Below, piece by piece: positions 8,624-44,735 of a stretch of 64,000 bases of DNA. The DNA lies in assembly GCF_000013045.1 (NCBI RefSeq), contig NC_007677.1, forward strand, positions 248,001-312,000, written 5' to 3'. This DNA is from Salinibacter ruber DSM 13855 (GTDB taxonomy: Bacteria > Bacteroidota > Rhodothermia > Rhodothermales > Salinibacteraceae). The position numbers and the translations under genes are program-made. Each line of letters begins with the position of its first letter. The first letter of the stretch is position 1. Under the pieces are notes generated by a model that ran no database searches, had not been told where the DNA came from, and saw nothing but the letters and a program-made list of their open reading frames with translations.

Positions 8624-8770
8624 CTTACAGCTACCACCGTAAGCGAGATGCTTATTTTTCGAGATACTAAATTGTTTCATTTCTCGAGAGCATCTGCCTC
8701 ATCGGTTGCTTGTCAGGCGCAATCGCACCGAATTGGTCTGCAGATGAGAACCAGAAGCGTCTCAGAACCT

Positions 8771-9014
8771 GGTATGTTGACTTTCCCTCGCAAGAGGGGC
8801 ACCTTCCCGGAAAGATCGGGAGATCCGAGGACGCTCGGACGGGAGGTGGGAACCCTGGTTAGAGCCTTTGGCCCCGGTGCTTGAAGCAACTGCATCGAGT
8901 ACCGGTGAGCCCGTTAAACAGAGTAGTTCCTGCCTCCCATTTCGGTGCGTTTGATTCCGGACAGCATCATAGGCATCACGCTTACCTTAGGACATAGATC
9001 CTGCATTTACCAGC
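8771..9014 (+). ncRNA. Bridge RNA candidate of IS110 copy 1
   Basis: The region holds successive hairpins (CCCGG/CGGG, CCGAGGACGCTCGG, CACCGAT-like) conserved in the second copy. AGAGCCT (8861-8867) resembles the left target AGAACCT, with one G/A difference that a G-U pair would tolerate. AAACAG (8916-8921) is complementary to the right flank CTGTTT. ACAGCATC (8961-8968) equals the element's right end, and TACCAG (9008-9013) is complementary to its left end. This is the arrangement of target- and donor-binding loops in IS621-type bridge RNA. Confidence 0.7.
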
Positions 9015-10025
9015 ATGGAAGAACCACCGAGACGTTCGAGCACCGATGAATTTACTTTTGCTCTGGGAATTGACGTTGGTAAGACAGCTCTGGAACTGGC
9101 CTTGTGCAACGGCGAGAAAATCGTCGCGAGAACGACCGTTTCCAACGATGCGGACGGCCACGATACCCTGGTGAGTTGGGTCGAAGATCGAGGAGGCGGG
9201 CCGGAGAAGACCTGCGTGTGTATGGAGGCTAGTGGCGACTTCGAAAAGGCCATTGCTCGTCGTCTCTACGAGGAAGACTACCGAGTCAGCGTCGTCAATC
9301 CGAGGCGGATCAAGGGGTATGCGTCAAGCCAACTGCAGCGAACGAAGACCGATTCTGCCGATGCGGCCTTGATCGCTCGTTTCGGCAGACGGGAGGATCC
9401 AAGGCCTTGGGAGCCGCCTTCAGCGGCGGAGAGCCGGCTTCAAGAGCTTACTCGGGCTCGCCAGGCCCTCCAAAAAGAGAAGACGCGGACGCAAAATCGA
9501 TTGGATGAGGCAGAGGACGAGGCAGTGCGCCGGGCCCACCAGAATCTCCTCGACGAGATCGAACAACAGATTGAGGATCTGGAGGAAGAGATCGAAGACC
9601 ACGTCGAGGAGGATCCAAAGCTGAAGGATCGATGCTCACTCCTGGACACGATACCGGGCATAGGCCTTCAAACTGCTGCGATCGTCGTAAGCGAGCTCGG
9701 CTCTCCCGAGCGATTCGAGAGTGCCCGCCAGGCAGCAGCGTATGCAGGCCTCGTGCCGAGCCATCATCAGTCGGGCACCTCCGTCCGTGGCAACCCTCGA
9801 ATGTCGAAGGTCGGTAATGGGCGCCTGCGGCGAGCGATGTACTTTCCAGCGATGACGGCGCTACGGTTCAACTCAGCGGTGAAGGCGTTCGGCAATCGTC
9901 TCAAAGAGCGAGGGAAAGAGAAGATGGTCGTGATTGGAGCGGCGATGCGGAAGCTCTTGCACATATGCTATGGGGTTCTCAAATCCGGTCGTCCCTTCGA
10001 TCCCTCGCTGCATCCTGGGACCTGA
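9015..10025 (+). CDS. IS110-family serine/DEDD recombinase (transposase), copy 1
   Basis: A 336-aa protein. The N-terminal RuvC-like domain has the first catalytic Asp in LGIDVGKTALELAL, then MEASGDFEKAIARRL and KTDSADAALIARF. A charged coiled-coil spacer follows (about residues 140-205). The C-terminal Tnp_20 domain has IPGIGLQTAAIVVSELG and SGTSVRGNPRMSKVGNGRLR with the catalytic Ser. All DEDD and Ser signatures are present, so this copy could be active. Together with the upstream RNA it would form an RNA-guided recombinase. Confidence 0.92.
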   Translation: MEEPPRRSSTDEFTFALGIDVGKTALELALCNGEKIVARTTVSNDADGHDTLVSWVEDRGGGPEKTCVCMEASGDFEKAIARRLYEEDYRVSVVNPRRIKGYASSQLQRTKTDSADAALIARFGRREDPRPWEPPSAAESRLQELTRARQALQKEKTRTQNRLDEAEDEAVRRAHQNLLDEIEQQIEDLEEEIEDHVEEDPKLKDRCSLLDTIPGIGLQTAAIVVSELGSPERFESARQAAAYAGLVPSHHQSGTSVRGNPRMSKVGNGRLRRAMYFPAMTALRFNSAVKAFGNRLKERGKEKMVVIGAAMRKLLHICYGVLKSGRPFDPSLHPGT

Positions 10026-10198
10026 CACGCTTGACACGCACCACAGCATCTGTTTTGATTTTGGGTCGGATAGCGAGAGCGAGAATTGACGGAACGAAAA
10101 TCGCATCCTGAACGATGCCTGTAGTGGGGCTACCGGTTGAGTGAAGGGGCGATTTGCAGTCCGTCAAGGCCGCTCGCAGCCCGAGAGATAAACTAAAA

Positions 10199-10881
10199 CA
10201 GACTCTTAGTGCCCTTCGGCTCCCCGTCTTCTTCGACATTGTACTGGCATCGGAGTTCGTATTGATCTCCGTCCCATCCAATCTCAACGCGCTTTGGTTC
10301 CTTCTCCGAAGGCCAGTCAATCAACACCGGGTTATTCCCTCGCCCATTGGAGAGGCGAAGCACGCCATCGTCTCGGAGCTTAATTGCCCCTGACTTCCAC
10401 TGGACTTTGAAATACCGCTTCTGTTTGTAGGGCGGTCGGAGACCCTCGTAGTCACCGTTTTCGCGTTTCTTGCGCCAACTCTGGAGGCTGTCGTAGAAGC
10501 TGTCTGCTACCGCTTGTGCTGACTGGCTGTGCAGCCCGTCGAAGCCCTTGCAGTACATCTTCTGGGCTTGCCCTTTCGAGAGCCAGTAGCCTTGGCGATC
10601 TACAAAACGCCAGTGCCACTTCGCCACGGTCGACCACAGTTTTCCTGCCCGCCGCGCAAGACGGTCGAGCCTGTCGGTCCTGCCTAATTTGAGCTTGCGA
10701 GTTAGGTGCACAGCATTCTGTCTCACTGCGCTGGGCGAGAAGAGTCCCGGAACCGACAGGTTCATGTGTCCCCAGGAGCGACAGCTCCATAAAAGCGACA
10801 GCTCCATAAAGCACGGGACCTTTACTGCGCTGCGGAGCGAGTGCTTTTGGAGTGCTCTTCTCGTGCTCTACTCAATAATGT
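10199..10881 (-). mobile_element. Truncated tnpB element (left end and 5' half of tnpB)
   Basis: The left end lies at 10881 (TTACATTATTGAGTAGAGCA on the minus strand), then hairpin insertions, then tnpB codons from a GTG at 10711 (HLTRKLKLGRTDRLDRL) to EDGEPKGTK, where homology stops at 10199. The RuvC half and the right end are missing. 10052-10198 and 10882-11180 contain no gene I can support; the latter reads FTSALLRLTTTDLWKIALAL on the minus strand, possibly a transposase scrap. Confidence 0.8.
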
Positions 10882-23622: not shown

Positions 23623-24837
23623 TTATCCCACGGGTCTGCATCCCTGCCACTGACAGGCGGCCTTACGCGAACTCGCCGGGTTACACCGCATGTGCGGTCG
23701 GTACCGCACTCCGGTGGGCGAAGCCATCTCGCCAGCTACTCGGACGGAATCCTGCCCGAGATACTTCTTTCGGATATTAGATGCACCTACGAGGTCCCGG
23801 TGTCCTTCAAACCCACACGAGCAGATGTACTCTCTGCCATGTGGTTTATGCCTATTTCCACAGGAGGGACACTCTTGACTTGTGTAGGCTTCTCCAACGC
23901 GCTTCACGGTCATTCCGTGGAGTCGCGCCTTGTACTCGATCATGCGAACAAACTCACCGTAGGCCCACTGGTGGAGCCTTTGGTTCGCCTTCGATCCGTA
24001 GTCCAAACCGTTTCGGATCCCTGTTAAGTCACCCACTACAACTGTTCCGACTCGTCTTTCGTGGAGAGTCTTTACCAGTCGCGTGGAATGTTTATGCAGG
24101 AGATCCTTGATCTGACTACGAATTTTGCCTAATTGTCGGTCCTTGGCTTGGACCAATCGCTTCCAACGTCTACTGCCGTATTCTTTTCGGTCGATCTTCG
24201 AGTCGAGTCGTGCTGCGGTGCGGTTCTGTTGTCGCCGTAGACTTCGTAGCTCTCTTCCATTGAAAGTCCAAGAATCATCCCCGGTATAAACAGCAGCGAG
24301 ATGTATTTCTCCGATGTCGATACCAGCCGTCTTGGTGCCTTTCGGCTCTTGATCTTCTTCGACCTCGTACTGACACCGAAGCTCGTACTGGCTGCCGTCC
24401 CAGCCGATCTCGACTCGTTTCGGCTTCGTGTCGGAAGGCCAGTCGATTAGCACCGGGTCGTTCCCTCGCCCATTAGAGAGGCGAAGTACGCCATCGTCTC
24501 GGAGCCGGATTGCGGCAGACTTCCACTGAACTTTGAAGTACCGCTTCTGCTTATAGGGCGGGCGAAGGCCCTCGTAGTCACCGCTGTCTCGCTTCTTGCG
24601 CCAGCTTTGGAGGCTGTCGTAGAAGCTGTCTGCCACTGCTTGAGCCGACTGGCTATGCAGCCCATCGACGCCCTTGCAGTGCATCTTTTGGGCTTGCCCT
24701 TTCGAGAGCCAGTATCCTTGGCGATCTACGAACCGCCAGTGCCACTTCGCCACGGTGGACCACAGATTGCCCGCCCGCCGAGCAAGACGGTCAAGTTGAT
24801 CTGTTTTGCCCAATTTGAGCTTGCGGGTCAGATACAT
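23623..24837 (-). CDS. tnpB: TnpB RNA-guided nuclease (type 1), intact
   Basis: 404 aa starting MYLTRKLKLGKTDQLDRLAR. RuvC-I AGIDIGEIHLAAVY, RuvC-II region VVVGDLTGIRNGL, zinc finger CPSCGNRHKPHGREYICSCG (the third/fourth ligands form C-x-C), RuvC-III GHRDLVGASNI. The C-terminus (KYLGQDSVRVAGEMASPTG) has none of the palindrome-encoded insertions of sister copies, so it approximates the ancestral form. Confidence 0.9.
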   Translation of the reverse strand: MYLTRKLKLGKTDQLDRLARRAGNLWSTVAKWHWRFVDRQGYWLSKGQAQKMHCKGVDGLHSQSAQAVADSFYDSLQSWRKKRDSGDYEGLRPPYKQKRYFKVQWKSAAIRLRDDGVLRLSNGRGNDPVLIDWPSDTKPKRVEIGWDGSQYELRCQYEVEEDQEPKGTKTAGIDIGEIHLAAVYTGDDSWTFNGRELRSLRRQQNRTAARLDSKIDRKEYGSRRWKRLVQAKDRQLGKIRSQIKDLLHKHSTRLVKTLHERRVGTVVVGDLTGIRNGLDYGSKANQRLHQWAYGEFVRMIEYKARLHGMTVKRVGEAYTSQECPSCGNRHKPHGREYICSCGFEGHRDLVGASNIRKKYLGQDSVRVAGEMASPTGVRYRPHMRCNPASSRKAACQWQGCRPVG

Positions 24838-26534: not shown

Positions 26535-27944
26535 CAGTATTGAGTAGAGCGCGAGAAGAGCAGTAAAGGTCCCGCGCTTTAGCCGGGACATACACGGACT
26601 CTTCTCGTGATCTCGAAGAGATCAATCCAGCGTATGTATCTGACTCGCAAACTCAAATTAGGCAGGACAGATCAGCTTGATGCCTTAGCGCGTCGAGCGG
26701 GTAATCTGTGGTCTACCGTAACGAAGTGGCACTGGCGCTTCGTTGACCGTCAAGGCTACTGGCTCTCGAAGGGACAGGCCCAGAAGATGTACTGCAAAGG
26801 CTTCGACGGGCTGCATAGCCAATCTGCTCAAGCAGTGGCAGATAGCTTCTACGACAGCCTCCAGAGTTGGCGCAAGAAGCAAAAGAGCGGCACCTATGAG
26901 GGGCTACGCCCGCCCTACAAGCAGAAGCGGCATTTCAAGGTGCAGTGGAAGTCCTCCGCGATTAAGCTCCGGGACGACGGTGTGCTCCGCCTTTCCAATG
27001 GGCGAGGGAACGATCCGGTGCTTATTGACTGGCCTTCCGACATGAAGCCGAAAAGAGTCGAGATTGGCTGGGACGGCGACCAGTATGAGCTTCGTTGCCA
27101 GTATAAGGTCGAAGAAGACGAGGAGCCGAAGGGCACCAAGACCGCTGGGATCGACATCGGTGAGATTCATCTAGCTGCCGTTTATACCGGAGATGAATCT
27201 TGGACTGTCAACGGTAGAGAGCTTCGGAGCTTGCGACGACAGCAGAACCACGCCCAAGCACGCCTCGACTCGGAGATTGACCGGAAAGAGTACGGAAGCA
27301 GAAGATGGAAACGACTGGTCCGCGCTAAGGACCAACAGCTTGAAAAGATTCGGAATCAGATCAAGGATCTCCTGCACAAGCAGTCTACGCGACTGATAAA
27401 GACGCTCCACGAGAGACGCGTCGGAACGGTTGTAGTGGGTAACTTGACAGGAATCCGCGAAGGTCTAGACTACGGAGCGAAGGCGAACCAGCGGCTTCAT
27501 CAGTGGGCCTATAGCGAGTTCGTCCAGATGCTTGAGTACAAGGCGCGACTGCACGGAATGACCGTGGAGCGTGTCGGTGAAGCCTACACAAGTCAAGAAT
27601 GCCCCTCCTGCGGAAATAGGCATAAACCACACGGCAGAGATTATATCTGCGGGTGCGGATTTGAGGGTCATCGAGACATCGTAGGTGCATCCAATATCCG
27701 ACAGAAGTATCTCGGGCAGGACAAGCCGAAAGGTTCTCCTCTCCGAGTAGCTGGCGAGATGGCTTCGCCCACCGGAGTGCGGTATCGTCCGCACATGCGA
27801 ACCGAGCCGACAGGCTCTGATCCGCAACGGTGTAACCCGGCGAGTTCGCGTAAGACCTCTTCCGAGAGGCAGGAATGCAGACCCGTGGGATAAGGGCAGA
27901 GAAGCCCGTGAAGAATCCTCCGGCTTTAGCCGGGGGAGAAGTCA
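26535..27944 (+). mobile_element. tnpB-only IS605 element inserted in the glycosyltransferase gene
   Basis: Left end CAGTATTGAGTAGAGCGCGA, right end CCGGGGGAGAAGTCA. The insertion lies directly after CTTA with no target duplication, as expected for single-stranded Y1 transposition. The left-end hairpin is the plain form with no micro-palindromes. Confidence 0.92.
26634..27893 (+). CDS. tnpB: TnpB (type 1) with two palindrome-encoded insertions
   Basis: 420 aa from MYLTRKLKLGRTDQLDALAR. All domains as in the copy at 23623, with catalytic AGIDIGEIHLAAVY and GHRDIVGASNI. Relative to that copy it has in-frame extra peptides KPKGSPL (from a GCCGAAAGGT hairpin near 27725) and RTEPTGSDPQ (from GAGCCGACAGGCTC, 27804-27817), both after the zinc finger where the coding region overlaps the presumed guide RNA. 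Confidence 0.9.
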   Translation: MYLTRKLKLGRTDQLDALARRAGNLWSTVTKWHWRFVDRQGYWLSKGQAQKMYCKGFDGLHSQSAQAVADSFYDSLQSWRKKQKSGTYEGLRPPYKQKRHFKVQWKSSAIKLRDDGVLRLSNGRGNDPVLIDWPSDMKPKRVEIGWDGDQYELRCQYKVEEDEEPKGTKTAGIDIGEIHLAAVYTGDESWTVNGRELRSLRRQQNHAQARLDSEIDRKEYGSRRWKRLVRAKDQQLEKIRNQIKDLLHKQSTRLIKTLHERRVGTVVVGNLTGIREGLDYGAKANQRLHQWAYSEFVQMLEYKARLHGMTVERVGEAYTSQECPSCGNRHKPHGRDYICGCGFEGHRDIVGASNIRQKYLGQDKPKGSPLRVAGEMASPTGVRYRPHMRTEPTGSDPQRCNPASSRKTSSERQECRPVG

Positions 27945-39111: not shown

Positions 39112-40522
39112 AGGTCCCGCGCTTTACGGAGCTGTCGCTTCTGGGGACATATGAACCTGTCGGTTCGGGGACTCTTCTCGCAGGTCCGAAGAGATCAATC
39201 CAGCGTATGTATCTGACTCGCAAACTCAAATTAGGCAGGACAGATCAGCTTGATGCCCTGGCGCGTCGAGCGGGTGATCTGTGGTCGACTGTGGCGAAGT
39301 GGCACTGGCGTTTTGTGGATCGCCAAGGCTACTGGCTCTCGAAGGGACAGTCCCAGACGATGCACTGCAAGGGCTATGAGGGTCTACATAGTCAATCTGC
39401 TCAAGCCGTCGCTGACAGCTTCTACGACAGCCTACAATCATGGCGCAAAAAACGAGACAGTGGCAACTATGAAGGTTTACGTCCACCCTACAAACAGAAG
39501 CGCTATTTCAAGATCCAGTGGAAGTCCTCTGCGATTAAGCTACGTGACGACGGTGTGCTGCGCCTCTCCAATGGGCGTGGCAACGACCCGGCGTTGATTA
39601 ACTGGCCTTCGGGCCAAGAACCGAAACGAGTCGAGATTGGATGGGACGGCGATCGGTACGAGCTTCGGTGCCAGCAGAAGGTCGAAGAAGACGGGGAGCC
39701 GAAGGGCTCTAAGACGGCTGGCATCGACGTAGGGGAGATCCATCTTGCGGCTGTCTACACGGAAGATGAGTCTTGGACCGTCAACGGCAGAGAACTTCGG
39801 AGTCTTCGTCGTCAACAGAACCGTACGAAGAAGAAGCTGGATTCGAAGATCGACCAGAAAGAGTACGGAAGTAGGAAATGGAAACGATTGGCCAGAGCCA
39901 AGGACCGACAGTTGAGAAAAACCCGCAACCAGATCAAGGATCTCCTCCACAAGCAATCCACGCGGCTGCTAAAGACTCTCCACGAAAGACGAGTCGGAAC
40001 AGTTGTAGTGGGCGACTTGACAGGAATCCGAGAAAGCATCGGCTACGGATCGAAGGCGAACCAGAAGCTCCACCAGTGGGCCTACGGCGAGTTCGCCAGA
40101 ATGATCGAGTACAAGGCGCGACTTTGCGGAATGACCGTCGAGCGTGTCGGTGAAGCCTACACAAGTCAAGAATGTCCCTCCTGCGGAAACAGGCATAAAC
40201 CACACGGCAGAGAGTACATCTGCGGCTGTGGGTTCGAGGGACACCGAGATCTCGTAGGTGCAGCCAATATCCGACAGAAGTATCTCGGGCAGGATGAACC
40301 GGAAGGTTCTCCTCTCCGAGTAGCTGGCGAAGGACCTAAACGGTCCGTCATGGCTTCGCCCACTGGTGTGCGGTATCGACCGCACATGCGGTGTAACCCG
40401 GCGACCGTTGGTAAGACCTCTACAGAGCCGAAAGGCTCTTGTGGGCAGGCGGGCAGACCCGTGGGATCAGGGCAGAGAAGCCCGCAGGAGAATCTCCCGG
40501 CTTTAGCCGGAGGAGAAGTCAA
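39052..40522 (+). mobile_element. tnpB-only IS605 element
   Basis: Left end CAGTATTGAGTAGAGCACGA plus GCACTCTAAAAGCACTCGCT, one GGAGC-type and one GAACC hairpin; right end CCCGGCTTTAGCCGGAGGAG then AAGTCAA. It has no tnpA. Confidence 0.88.
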
Positions 40523-40538
40523 AGCGTCTGAGACGTAA
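39207..40538 (+). CDS. tnpB: TnpB (type 1) with three palindrome-encoded insertions
   Basis: 443 aa from MYLTRKLKLGRTDQLDALAR; AGIDVGEIHLAAVY and GHRDLVGAANI intact. Extra in-frame peptides after the zinc finger: EPEGSPL (GAACCGGAAGGTTC, 40296-40309), EGPKRSV (GGACCTAAACGGTCC, 40332-40346) and TEPKGSC (GAGCCGAAAGGCTC, 40425-40438). The stop is lost so the frame reads through the right end. Catalytically it looks intact. Confidence 0.88.
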   Translation: MYLTRKLKLGRTDQLDALARRAGDLWSTVAKWHWRFVDRQGYWLSKGQSQTMHCKGYEGLHSQSAQAVADSFYDSLQSWRKKRDSGNYEGLRPPYKQKRYFKIQWKSSAIKLRDDGVLRLSNGRGNDPALINWPSGQEPKRVEIGWDGDRYELRCQQKVEEDGEPKGSKTAGIDVGEIHLAAVYTEDESWTVNGRELRSLRRQQNRTKKKLDSKIDQKEYGSRKWKRLARAKDRQLRKTRNQIKDLLHKQSTRLLKTLHERRVGTVVVGDLTGIRESIGYGSKANQKLHQWAYGEFARMIEYKARLCGMTVERVGEAYTSQECPSCGNRHKPHGREYICGCGFEGHRDLVGAANIRQKYLGQDEPEGSPLRVAGEGPKRSVMASPTGVRYRPHMRCNPATVGKTSTEPKGSCGQAGRPVGSGQRSPQENLPALAGGEVKASET

Positions 40539-43189: not shown

Positions 43190-44735
43190 ACAGTATTGAG
43201 TAGAGCGCGAGAAGAGCACTCCAAAAGCACTCTAAAAGCACTCGCTCCGCAGCGCAGTAAAGGTCCCGCGCTTTATGGAGCTGTCGCTTTTATGGAGCTG
43301 TCGCTCCTGGGGACATATGAACCTGTCGGTTCTGAACCTGTCGGTTCTGAACCTGTCGGTTCTGAACCTGTCGGTTCGGGGACTCTTCTCGCCCAGCGCA
43401 GTGAGACAAAATGCTATGTATCTGACTCGCAAGCTCAAATTGGGCAGGACCGATCAGCTTGACCGCCTTGCGCGGCGGGCGGGTCATCTCTGGTCGACTG
43501 TGGCGAAGTTGCATTGGCGATTCGTTGACCGTCAGGGCTACTGGCTCTCGAAAGGGCAAGCCCAGAAGATGTACTGCAAGGGCTTCGACGGGCTGCACAG
43601 CCAGTCGGCTCAGGCAATAGCGGACAGCTTCTACGACAGCCTCCAGAGTTTGCGCAAGAAACGAGACAACGGCAGCTATGAGGGCTTGCGCCCGCCCTAC
43701 AAGCAGAAGCGCTACTTCAAGGTCCAGTGGAAGTCCTCTGCGATTAAGCTACGTGACGACGGTGTGCTGCGTCTTTCCAACGGACGCGGCACCGACCCGG
43801 TGCTAATCGACTGGCCTGTGGGCAAAGAACCGAAACGAGCCGAGATCGGCTGGGACGGCAGCCAGCATGAGCTTCGGTGCCAGTACAAAGTCGAAGAGAA
43901 CGAAGAGCCGAAGGGACAGAAAAAAGCAGGCGTAGACCTCGGAGAACGGCACCTTGCGACCGTATATGTCGAGAACGGAGAGAACATCAGTGTTCGCGGC
44001 GGACGGCTTCGTTCGCTCCGCAGGCAACACAACCGAATGTTGAGCACCCTGAGGTCGAAGATCGACCGGAAAGAGAAAGGAAGCAGGCGTTGGAAGCGGC
44101 TCATCCGAGCCAAGAACCGTCAACTACAGAAGATTCGCAATCGGATTGAGGACTTTCTGCACAAAACCGCGACGCGACTCGTCAATACCCTCCACGAGAG
44201 ACGGGTAGGATCAGTTGTAGTCGGCGACCTCACGGGAATCCGCGAGCGGATCTCCTACGGCAGCCGGATGAATCAACGCCTGCACCAATGGGCATACTCG
44301 AAGTTTGAGCACATGCTCACCTACAAGGCCCAGCTTCGCGGATAGGCCGCCCAAGCGGGCCTCGGAAGCCTACACGTCTCAGACATGCCCAGATTGCGAG
44401 CACAAACACAAACCGAATGGCAGAGACTTCGACTGCCCACAGTGCTCGTTTGAGGCACACCGGGACGTGGTAGGCGCACGAAATATCCTGAACGAGAGGT
44501 ATCCTGGGGACGAACCGACAGGTTCTACCCAGGTAGCTGGCGAAGGACCTAAACGGTCCGTCATGGCTTCGCCCACTGGCATTCGGTATCGACCGAATAT
44601 GCAGTGTAACCCGGCGACCGCTAGTAAGACCTCTGCAGAGCCGAAAGGCTCTTGTAGGCAGGCGGGCAGACCCGTGGGATAAGGGCAGAGAAGCCCGCAG
44701 GAGAATCTCCCGGCTTCAGCCGGGGGAGAAGTCAA
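43190..44735 (+). mobile_element. tnpB-only IS605 element with the largest hairpin array
   Basis: The left end is followed by two GGAGCTGTCGC units and four GAACCTGTCGGTTC units (43318-43379). The right end is CCGGCTTCAGCCGGGGGAGA then AGTCAA. It carries a tnpB with an inactivating palindrome. Confidence 0.88.
43416..44682 (+). pseudogene. tnpB: TnpB, broken by a palindromic insertion
   Basis: From MYLTRKLKLGRTDQLDRLAR through AGVDLGERHLATVY to YKAQLRG, then a stop. Where sister copies encode MTVERVGEAYTSQ this copy has GGCCGCCCAAGCGGGCC, creating the stop and a frameshift; the zinc finger and GAHRDVV segment follow in another frame, with EPTGS, EGPKRSV and EPKGS inserts. The same lesion is in the copy at 48125, so the broken element has still been propagated. 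Confidence 0.88.

What the first reader, a model, noticed from the sequence alone, without database searches (positions are those of the whole stretch)
8771..9014. Bridge-RNA loops of two IS110 copies match their own different targets
At the same RNA position copy 2 has TAGAAGCT, identical to its left flank in tnpB, while copy 1 has AGAGCCT against its flank AGAACCT (one wobble-compatible difference). Right-guide candidates AAACAG and GGAACAG are complementary to CTGTTT and, in part, CTGTCC. The donor-loop candidate ACAGCATC equals the right end in both copies. In IS621 the bridge RNA specifies both target and donor in this way, so reprogrammed targeting between copies is visible here by eye.
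Basis: partly seen in the sequence, partly recalled or inferred. Interest (0 to 1): 0.82.

Follow-up and report, generated by a model that had tools for sequence, protein, structure and literature searches.

The report
RNA-guided jumping genes aimed differently
Two related jumping genes in this salt-loving bacterium each carry a short guide RNA whose loops match the different DNA sites where each one sits, so this is a clear natural example of the known IS110 "bridge RNA" system, and in this group the guides mostly aim at the tips of other jumping genes.

Summary
The finding holds up, with corrections. Window 8771-9014 is the left end of an IS110 element (NCBIfam IS110, 261.6 bits; nearest solved structure IS621). 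A divergent second copy (86% aa) lies at 48335-49604, minus strand; a third is elsewhere in the genome. Across 12-15 related elements, the left and right target guides match their own flanks far better than shuffled partners (0 of 100,000 permutations each). A position-blind scan of the left end picked exactly 8859 (left guide) and 8915 (right guide). Both lie in an internal loop between covarying stems. Donor guides and the circle-junction promoter also follow IS621. Correction: copy 2's right guide is CCGGATGG, not GGAACAG. Exceptions: left guides of L010 and L034 do not match; L012 and L028 are one base out of register. New context: left flanks in this group are mostly TNAGARNCT, which where checked (copy 1, L009, L012) is the TNA duplication plus terminal repeat of IS5-like miniature elements. 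Copy 2 instead sits in tnpB, and its recombinase has lost a catalytic Asp. Copies are old, divergent and mosaic, so reprogramming of one element is not shown. New member of a known kind.

The parts
8769..8770 (+). CT core at left junction of copy 1
   Evidence: junctions aligned among copies
8762..8770 (+). left target of copy 1 (TCAGAACCT)
8771..10051 (+). IS110 element copy 1 (1281 bp counting the right core)
8841..8938 (+). target-binding arm: stem 8841-8853 with 8926-8938 around an internal loop
   Evidence: RNAalifold and pair counts
8859..8867 (+). left target guide UUAGAGCCU
   Evidence: best column of blind scan, z 5.5
8914..8921 (+). right target guide UUAAACAG
   Evidence: best column of blind scan at 8915, z 6.4
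8961..8969 (+). left donor guide ACAGCAUCA (ACAGCAUC equals right end)
9004..9013 (+). right donor guide CAU-UU-ACCAG, complementary to CTGGT/ATG of the left end with two extra U
   Evidence: comparison with IS621 U159/U160 (PMC11208158)
8941..9031 (+). donor-binding arm; closing stem 8941-8949 with 9025-9031, the latter inside the first codons of the recombinase gene
   Evidence: 4 of 7 pairs with compensatory changes
9015..10025 (+). IS110 recombinase gene, 336 aa, catalytic D20, E71, D113, D116 and the GTSVRG serine present
10025..10051 (+). right end with TTGACA and ACAGCAT-CT; joined to the left end gives TTGACA-17-TATGTT
10050..10205 (+). rest of an IS5-like miniature element whose left terminal repeat copy 1 entered
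48335..49604 (-). IS110 element copy 2 (1270 bp), inside a tnpB gene
49605..49613 (-). left target of copy 2 (GTAGAAGCT)
49508..49516 (-). copy 2 left target guide UUAGAAGCU
49467..49474 (-). copy 2 right target guide CCGGAUGG
49419..49427 (-). copy 2 left donor guide
49374..49383 (-). copy 2 right donor guide
48362..49372 (-). copy 2 recombinase, first catalytic Asp replaced (LGIDVGK to LGMGARK)

Best explanation
Each copy is an IS110-group insertion sequence that encodes a bridge RNA in its left end. The RNA's first internal loop reads the target (left guide on the bottom strand, right guide on the top strand, both including the CT core). The second loop reads the element's own joined ends. 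After excision the right end supplies TTGACA and the left end TATGTT, 17 bases apart, so the circle can transcribe the RNA. The recombinase then joins circle and target at CT without duplicating the target. The copies sit at different sites because their guides differ. In this group most guides read a TNA target duplication plus GARNCTGTTT terminal repeat of IS5-like elements; copy 2 carries a changed right guide and sits at a look-alike site in tnpB. Shown by sequence: boundaries, empty site of copy 2, guide/target covariation, RNA structure, terminal-repeat targets in three cases. Inferred: transcription, RNA binding, activity.
For: Own-versus-shuffled guide/target tests and the position-blind scan that recovers both guides with the correct strand sense. 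Covarying structure with guides unpaired: 19 of 43 pairs with two-sided changes against 8.8 +/- 1.8 shuffled. Two identical copies in G067 (L027, L013) at two sites that share only CGCGATGG-CT-TTTTC, which is what their guides read. Donor guides change together with the left end in three subgroups: GGTATG/ACCAG, AATATG/ATTAG, AGTATG/ACTAG. Junction promoter with 17-base spacer in copies 1-3, L008-L011. Gap-free empty site for copy 2. Recombinase family. Terminal-repeat targets.
Against: No transcript or activity data. L010 left guide matches 3.5 of 7 and L034 1.5 of 7. L012 and L028 match one base out of register. L008 has a mismatch next to the core. Copy 2's recombinase lacks a residue that is essential in IS621, so it cannot have moved on its own in its present form. 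Rfam has no family that matches.
Confidence: 0.93

Rival explanations
1. The recombinase protein recognises a TNAGARNCT-type target itself, and the loop resemblance is a by-product of shared composition.
For: Most close relatives share the left-target motif (14 of 21 junctions), so within the close group much of the match is family consensus: mean cross-match is 4 to 5 of 7.
Against: Variable bases track each other; L010, L011, L012, L027, L014 and L015 have unrelated targets that match their own guides; the scan over 191-195 columns and both senses peaks only at the two loop positions.
Confidence: 0.03
2. Guides are copied from the site after insertion, or change after insertion, so the match is consequence rather than cause.
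For: L034 and L010 left guides have departed from their flanks, so loops can change while the element stays; the left end of copy 2 appears exchanged between lineages.
Against: Residual differences in copy 1 are wobble-compatible rather than identical; two identical L027/L013 copies at two sites carry one guide; IS621 biochemistry shows the guide as cause (PMC11208160).
Confidence: 0.05
3. The copies are decayed relics and the guide match is only a fossil.
For: No two near-identical copies in this genome; copy 2 lost a catalytic Asp; many truncated left ends in relatives.
Against: Copy 1 is full length with an intact reading frame and all five catalytic residues; this rival concerns present activity, not what the system is.
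Confidence: 0.4

Closest known systems
IS621 bridge RNA and recombinase (IS110 group)
   Same: Left-end RNA, two internal loops, guide polarity, CT core, discontiguous right donor guide with two unpaired U, promoter rebuilt at the circle junction, homologous recombinase (phmmer 1.1e-69).
   Different: About 41% identical protein; extra 5' hairpins; donor-loop closing stem runs into the recombinase gene; targets are mostly terminal repeats of IS5-like elements rather than REP sequences.
ISCro4 transposase (PDB 9t56)
   Same: Second solved IS110-group relative.
   Different: Not compared beyond sequence.
IS4321/IS5075 (IS1111 group)
   Same: Also aim at terminal inverted repeats of other transposons (cited in PMC11208160 and PMC11187229).
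   Different: IS1111 elements have subterminal inverted repeats and their RNA in the right end; here the RNA is in the left end.

Membership tests
IS110 family, IS110 group, bridge-RNA guided | DEDD recombinase with Transposase_20 domain | tested here: met
   PF01548 and PF02371 over cut-off, NF033542 261.6 bits against 140; copy 2 lacks the first Asp
IS110 family, IS110 group, bridge-RNA guided | Long left end carrying a structured RNA; short right end | tested here: met
   244 bp left, 26 bp right; covarying structure
IS110 family, IS110 group, bridge-RNA guided | Left guide pairs bottom strand, right guide pairs top strand of target, both over the core | tested here: met
IS110 family, IS110 group, bridge-RNA guided | Donor guides match the element's own joined ends | tested here: met
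   by inspection of three subgroups, not by permutation
[quoted passage not shown]
   TTGACA-17-TATGTT in sequence only; 20-base spacer in the 50-55% relatives
IS110 family, IS110 group, bridge-RNA guided | Insertion without target duplication | tested here: met
   copy 2 flanks align gap-free to five tnpB copies
IS110 family, IS110 group, bridge-RNA guided | RNA expressed and bound by the recombinase; guide swap moves the target | not testable with these tools
   needs experiment
IS1111 group | Subterminal inverted repeats of 7-17 bp and RNA in the right end | tested here: not met
   right end is 26 bp and the RNA lies in the left end; no such repeats seen by eye in the ends

The most novel reading that the evidence does not exclude
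A lineage of IS110 elements whose bridge RNAs are kept tuned to the duplicated target plus terminal repeat of IS5-like elements, following the variation of those repeats, and which retargets in nature by swapping the left end carrying the guide between divergent recombinase lineages.
Probability: 0.4. Interest if true: 0.62.

Novelty: new member of a known kind. Interest (0 to 1): 0.42.

Why it matters
Bridge RNAs are already known, so the mechanism is not new. What this adds is a compact natural series of divergent copies in one genus with guides and targets that can be read by eye and tested by guide swaps. It also suggests that one IS110 lineage lives off the ends of IS5-like elements, and it gives a hint of how guides change in nature (left-end exchange). 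The overlap of the RNA's last stem with the recombinase gene is a constraint that could be tested.

Tried and rejected
GGAACAG as copy 2's right guide: rejected, off register. Rfam search of six loci: only two sub-threshold matches, isrN in L014 and sR32 in L007, both below the gathering score and taken as chance. Viral contigs: no relative. Empty site of copy 3 in G063: 68% identity with a gap at the junction, inconclusive, and no opposite terminal repeat found beside copy 3. Single-sequence folds put parts of the guides in weak pairs, but the 14-sequence consensus leaves them unpaired. A common origin for copy 2 and the pSR66 copy, to explain their shared loss of the Asp, was rejected: they are not sisters.

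Full report
What is there. The window is part of a 3,551,823-base contig (G000:C1:248001-312000). The size, and the only left-end hit outside the held genomes (Salinibacter ruber plasmid pSR66), point to Salinibacter ruber; the size match to the type strain is from my own knowledge. The coordinates 8771-9014 are exactly the noncoding left end of an IS110 element that ends at 10051. The recombinase is 336 aa and matches PF01548, PF02371 and NCBIfam NF033542, and its nearest solved relative is IS621. Copy 2 is at 48335-49604 on the minus strand and a third copy lies at C1 3.43 Mb. Protein identity of copies 2 and 3 to copy 1 is 86% and 84%.

Boundaries. All copies run from CT|GGTATGTTGA to ACAGCAT|CT. 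Joining the flanks of copy 2 gives a sequence that aligns over all 302 bases without a gap to five tnpB copies in the same window. The element therefore entered at one CT with no duplication, which is the IS110 pattern.

Guides. Relatives were collected from the order, genus, plasmids and genome contigs. Guides were read from fixed alignment columns. The left guide and left flank of each element agree at 78.5 of 105 non-core points against 49.7 +/- 5.2 with shuffled partners, and the right guide at 55 against 33.2 +/- 3.4; no permutation of 100,000 reached either. In the closest relatives alone the numbers are 55 against 42.6 +/- 3.1 (10 of 100,000) and 32.5 against 22.5 +/- 2.7 (263 of 100,000). 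These tests treat elements as independent, which they are not fully. A scan of every usable left-end column, in both senses, with no prior choice of position, put its maximum for the left flank at window 8859 (same sense as the top strand, z 5.5) and for the right flank at 8915 (antisense, z 6.4). That is the IS621 scheme described in PMC11208160.

Exceptions. L010 matches well on the right (perfect) but poorly on the left. L034, a truncated copy on pSR66 fused to a regulator gene, does not match on the left although its flank still resembles the family motif. In L012 and L028 the left match is one base out of register with the CT core; target and donor share TCT there, so the exact crossover is ambiguous.

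Structure. The 14-sequence consensus has the two target guides in an internal loop between stems, with a donor arm after it. 95.0% of cells pair against 87.5 +/- 0.7 shuffled, and 19 pairs show two-sided changes against 8.8 +/- 1.8; sliding the partners destroys this. The structure was derived from the same alignment, so the slid control is biased in its favour. The stem that closes the donor arm has its 3' side at 9025-9031, inside the first codons of the recombinase gene, with compensatory changes in 4 of 7 pairs. Whether IS621's RNA does the same I could not establish from the papers read.

Donor. ACAGCAUC equals the right end. The right donor guide CAU-UU-ACCAG pairs with CTGGT and ATG of the left end, leaving two U unpaired; [quoted passage not shown] In relatives the left end and this guide change together (AATATG with ATTAG, AGTATG with ACTAG). 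The joined ends give TTGACA-17-TATGTT in copies 1 to 3, as IS621 rebuilds a promoter.

What the guides aim at. Copy 1's right flank is a miniature element of about 155 bases. It is repeated in G062 and G069, has AGAGTCTGTTTT ends and is mostly flanked by TNA. An IS5-family transposase gene lies beside such an end in the same genome (L084). L009 sits in a miniature element flanked by TGA on both sides, and L012 sits in one flanked by TTA, in the opposite orientation. 14 of 21 left junctions in the close group, counting truncated left ends, read TNAGARNCT, against 0.23% of CT sites in the window; junctions are not all independent, so the binomial value of 1e-32 is only indicative. Copy 2's site in tnpB resembles this motif but differs on the right side, and its right guide differs accordingly. 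Aiming at transposon ends is known for IS4321/IS5075 of the IS1111 group (references in PMC11208160 and PMC11187229).

How the guides came to differ. Outside the guides, the left end of copy 2 groups with copy 3 and L009, while its gene and right end group with copy 1 and L008 (Fisher p from 1.2e-5 to 0.009 over four comparisons). This suggests exchange of left ends by recombination, but other mosaic tracts are visible and sites are linked, so it is a lead.

Copy 2's recombinase. LGIDVGK is LGMGARK in copy 2, so the residue equivalent to IS621 D11 is gone; mutating D11 abolished recombination in IS621 (PMC11208158). Copy 2 moved before this change or was moved by another copy's protein.

Verdict. 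Observation confirmed, mechanism well supported as inference, membership in the IS110 group met on every feature that could be tested. Ordinary in kind, good in clarity, with two mildly new points (terminal-repeat targeting in this group, left-end exchange).

Noticed in passing
window 48362-49372 and L034:3261-3761: Copy 2 and the truncated pSR66 copy share the same four substitutions (IDVG to MGAR) that remove a catalytic Asp, although they are not sisters elsewhere; a gene-conversion tract or a spread dead variant.
   Followed up: partly
L044, L047, L049, L052, L055, L057, L058, L061-L065: Truncated or contig-end left ends of this element in relatives, most preceded by TNAGARNCT.
   Followed up: partly
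L012 and L028: Left guide matches the flank one base away from the CT core; target and donor both carry TCT, so the core may be TC in these elements.
   Followed up: no
L011 junction: The target is a palindrome, CTACCGACAG-CTGTCGGTAG, so left and right guides are almost the same sequence.
   Followed up: no
window 10193-10807, 23623-24837, 26607-27893, 39207-40538, 43275-44345, 48014-48361: Many tnpB copies; several keep the intact copy 2 target GTCGTAGAAGCTGTC.
   Followed up: partly
G062 genome-wide: About 30 matches to an IS5-like miniature element with AGAGTCTGTTTT ends.
   Followed up: partly
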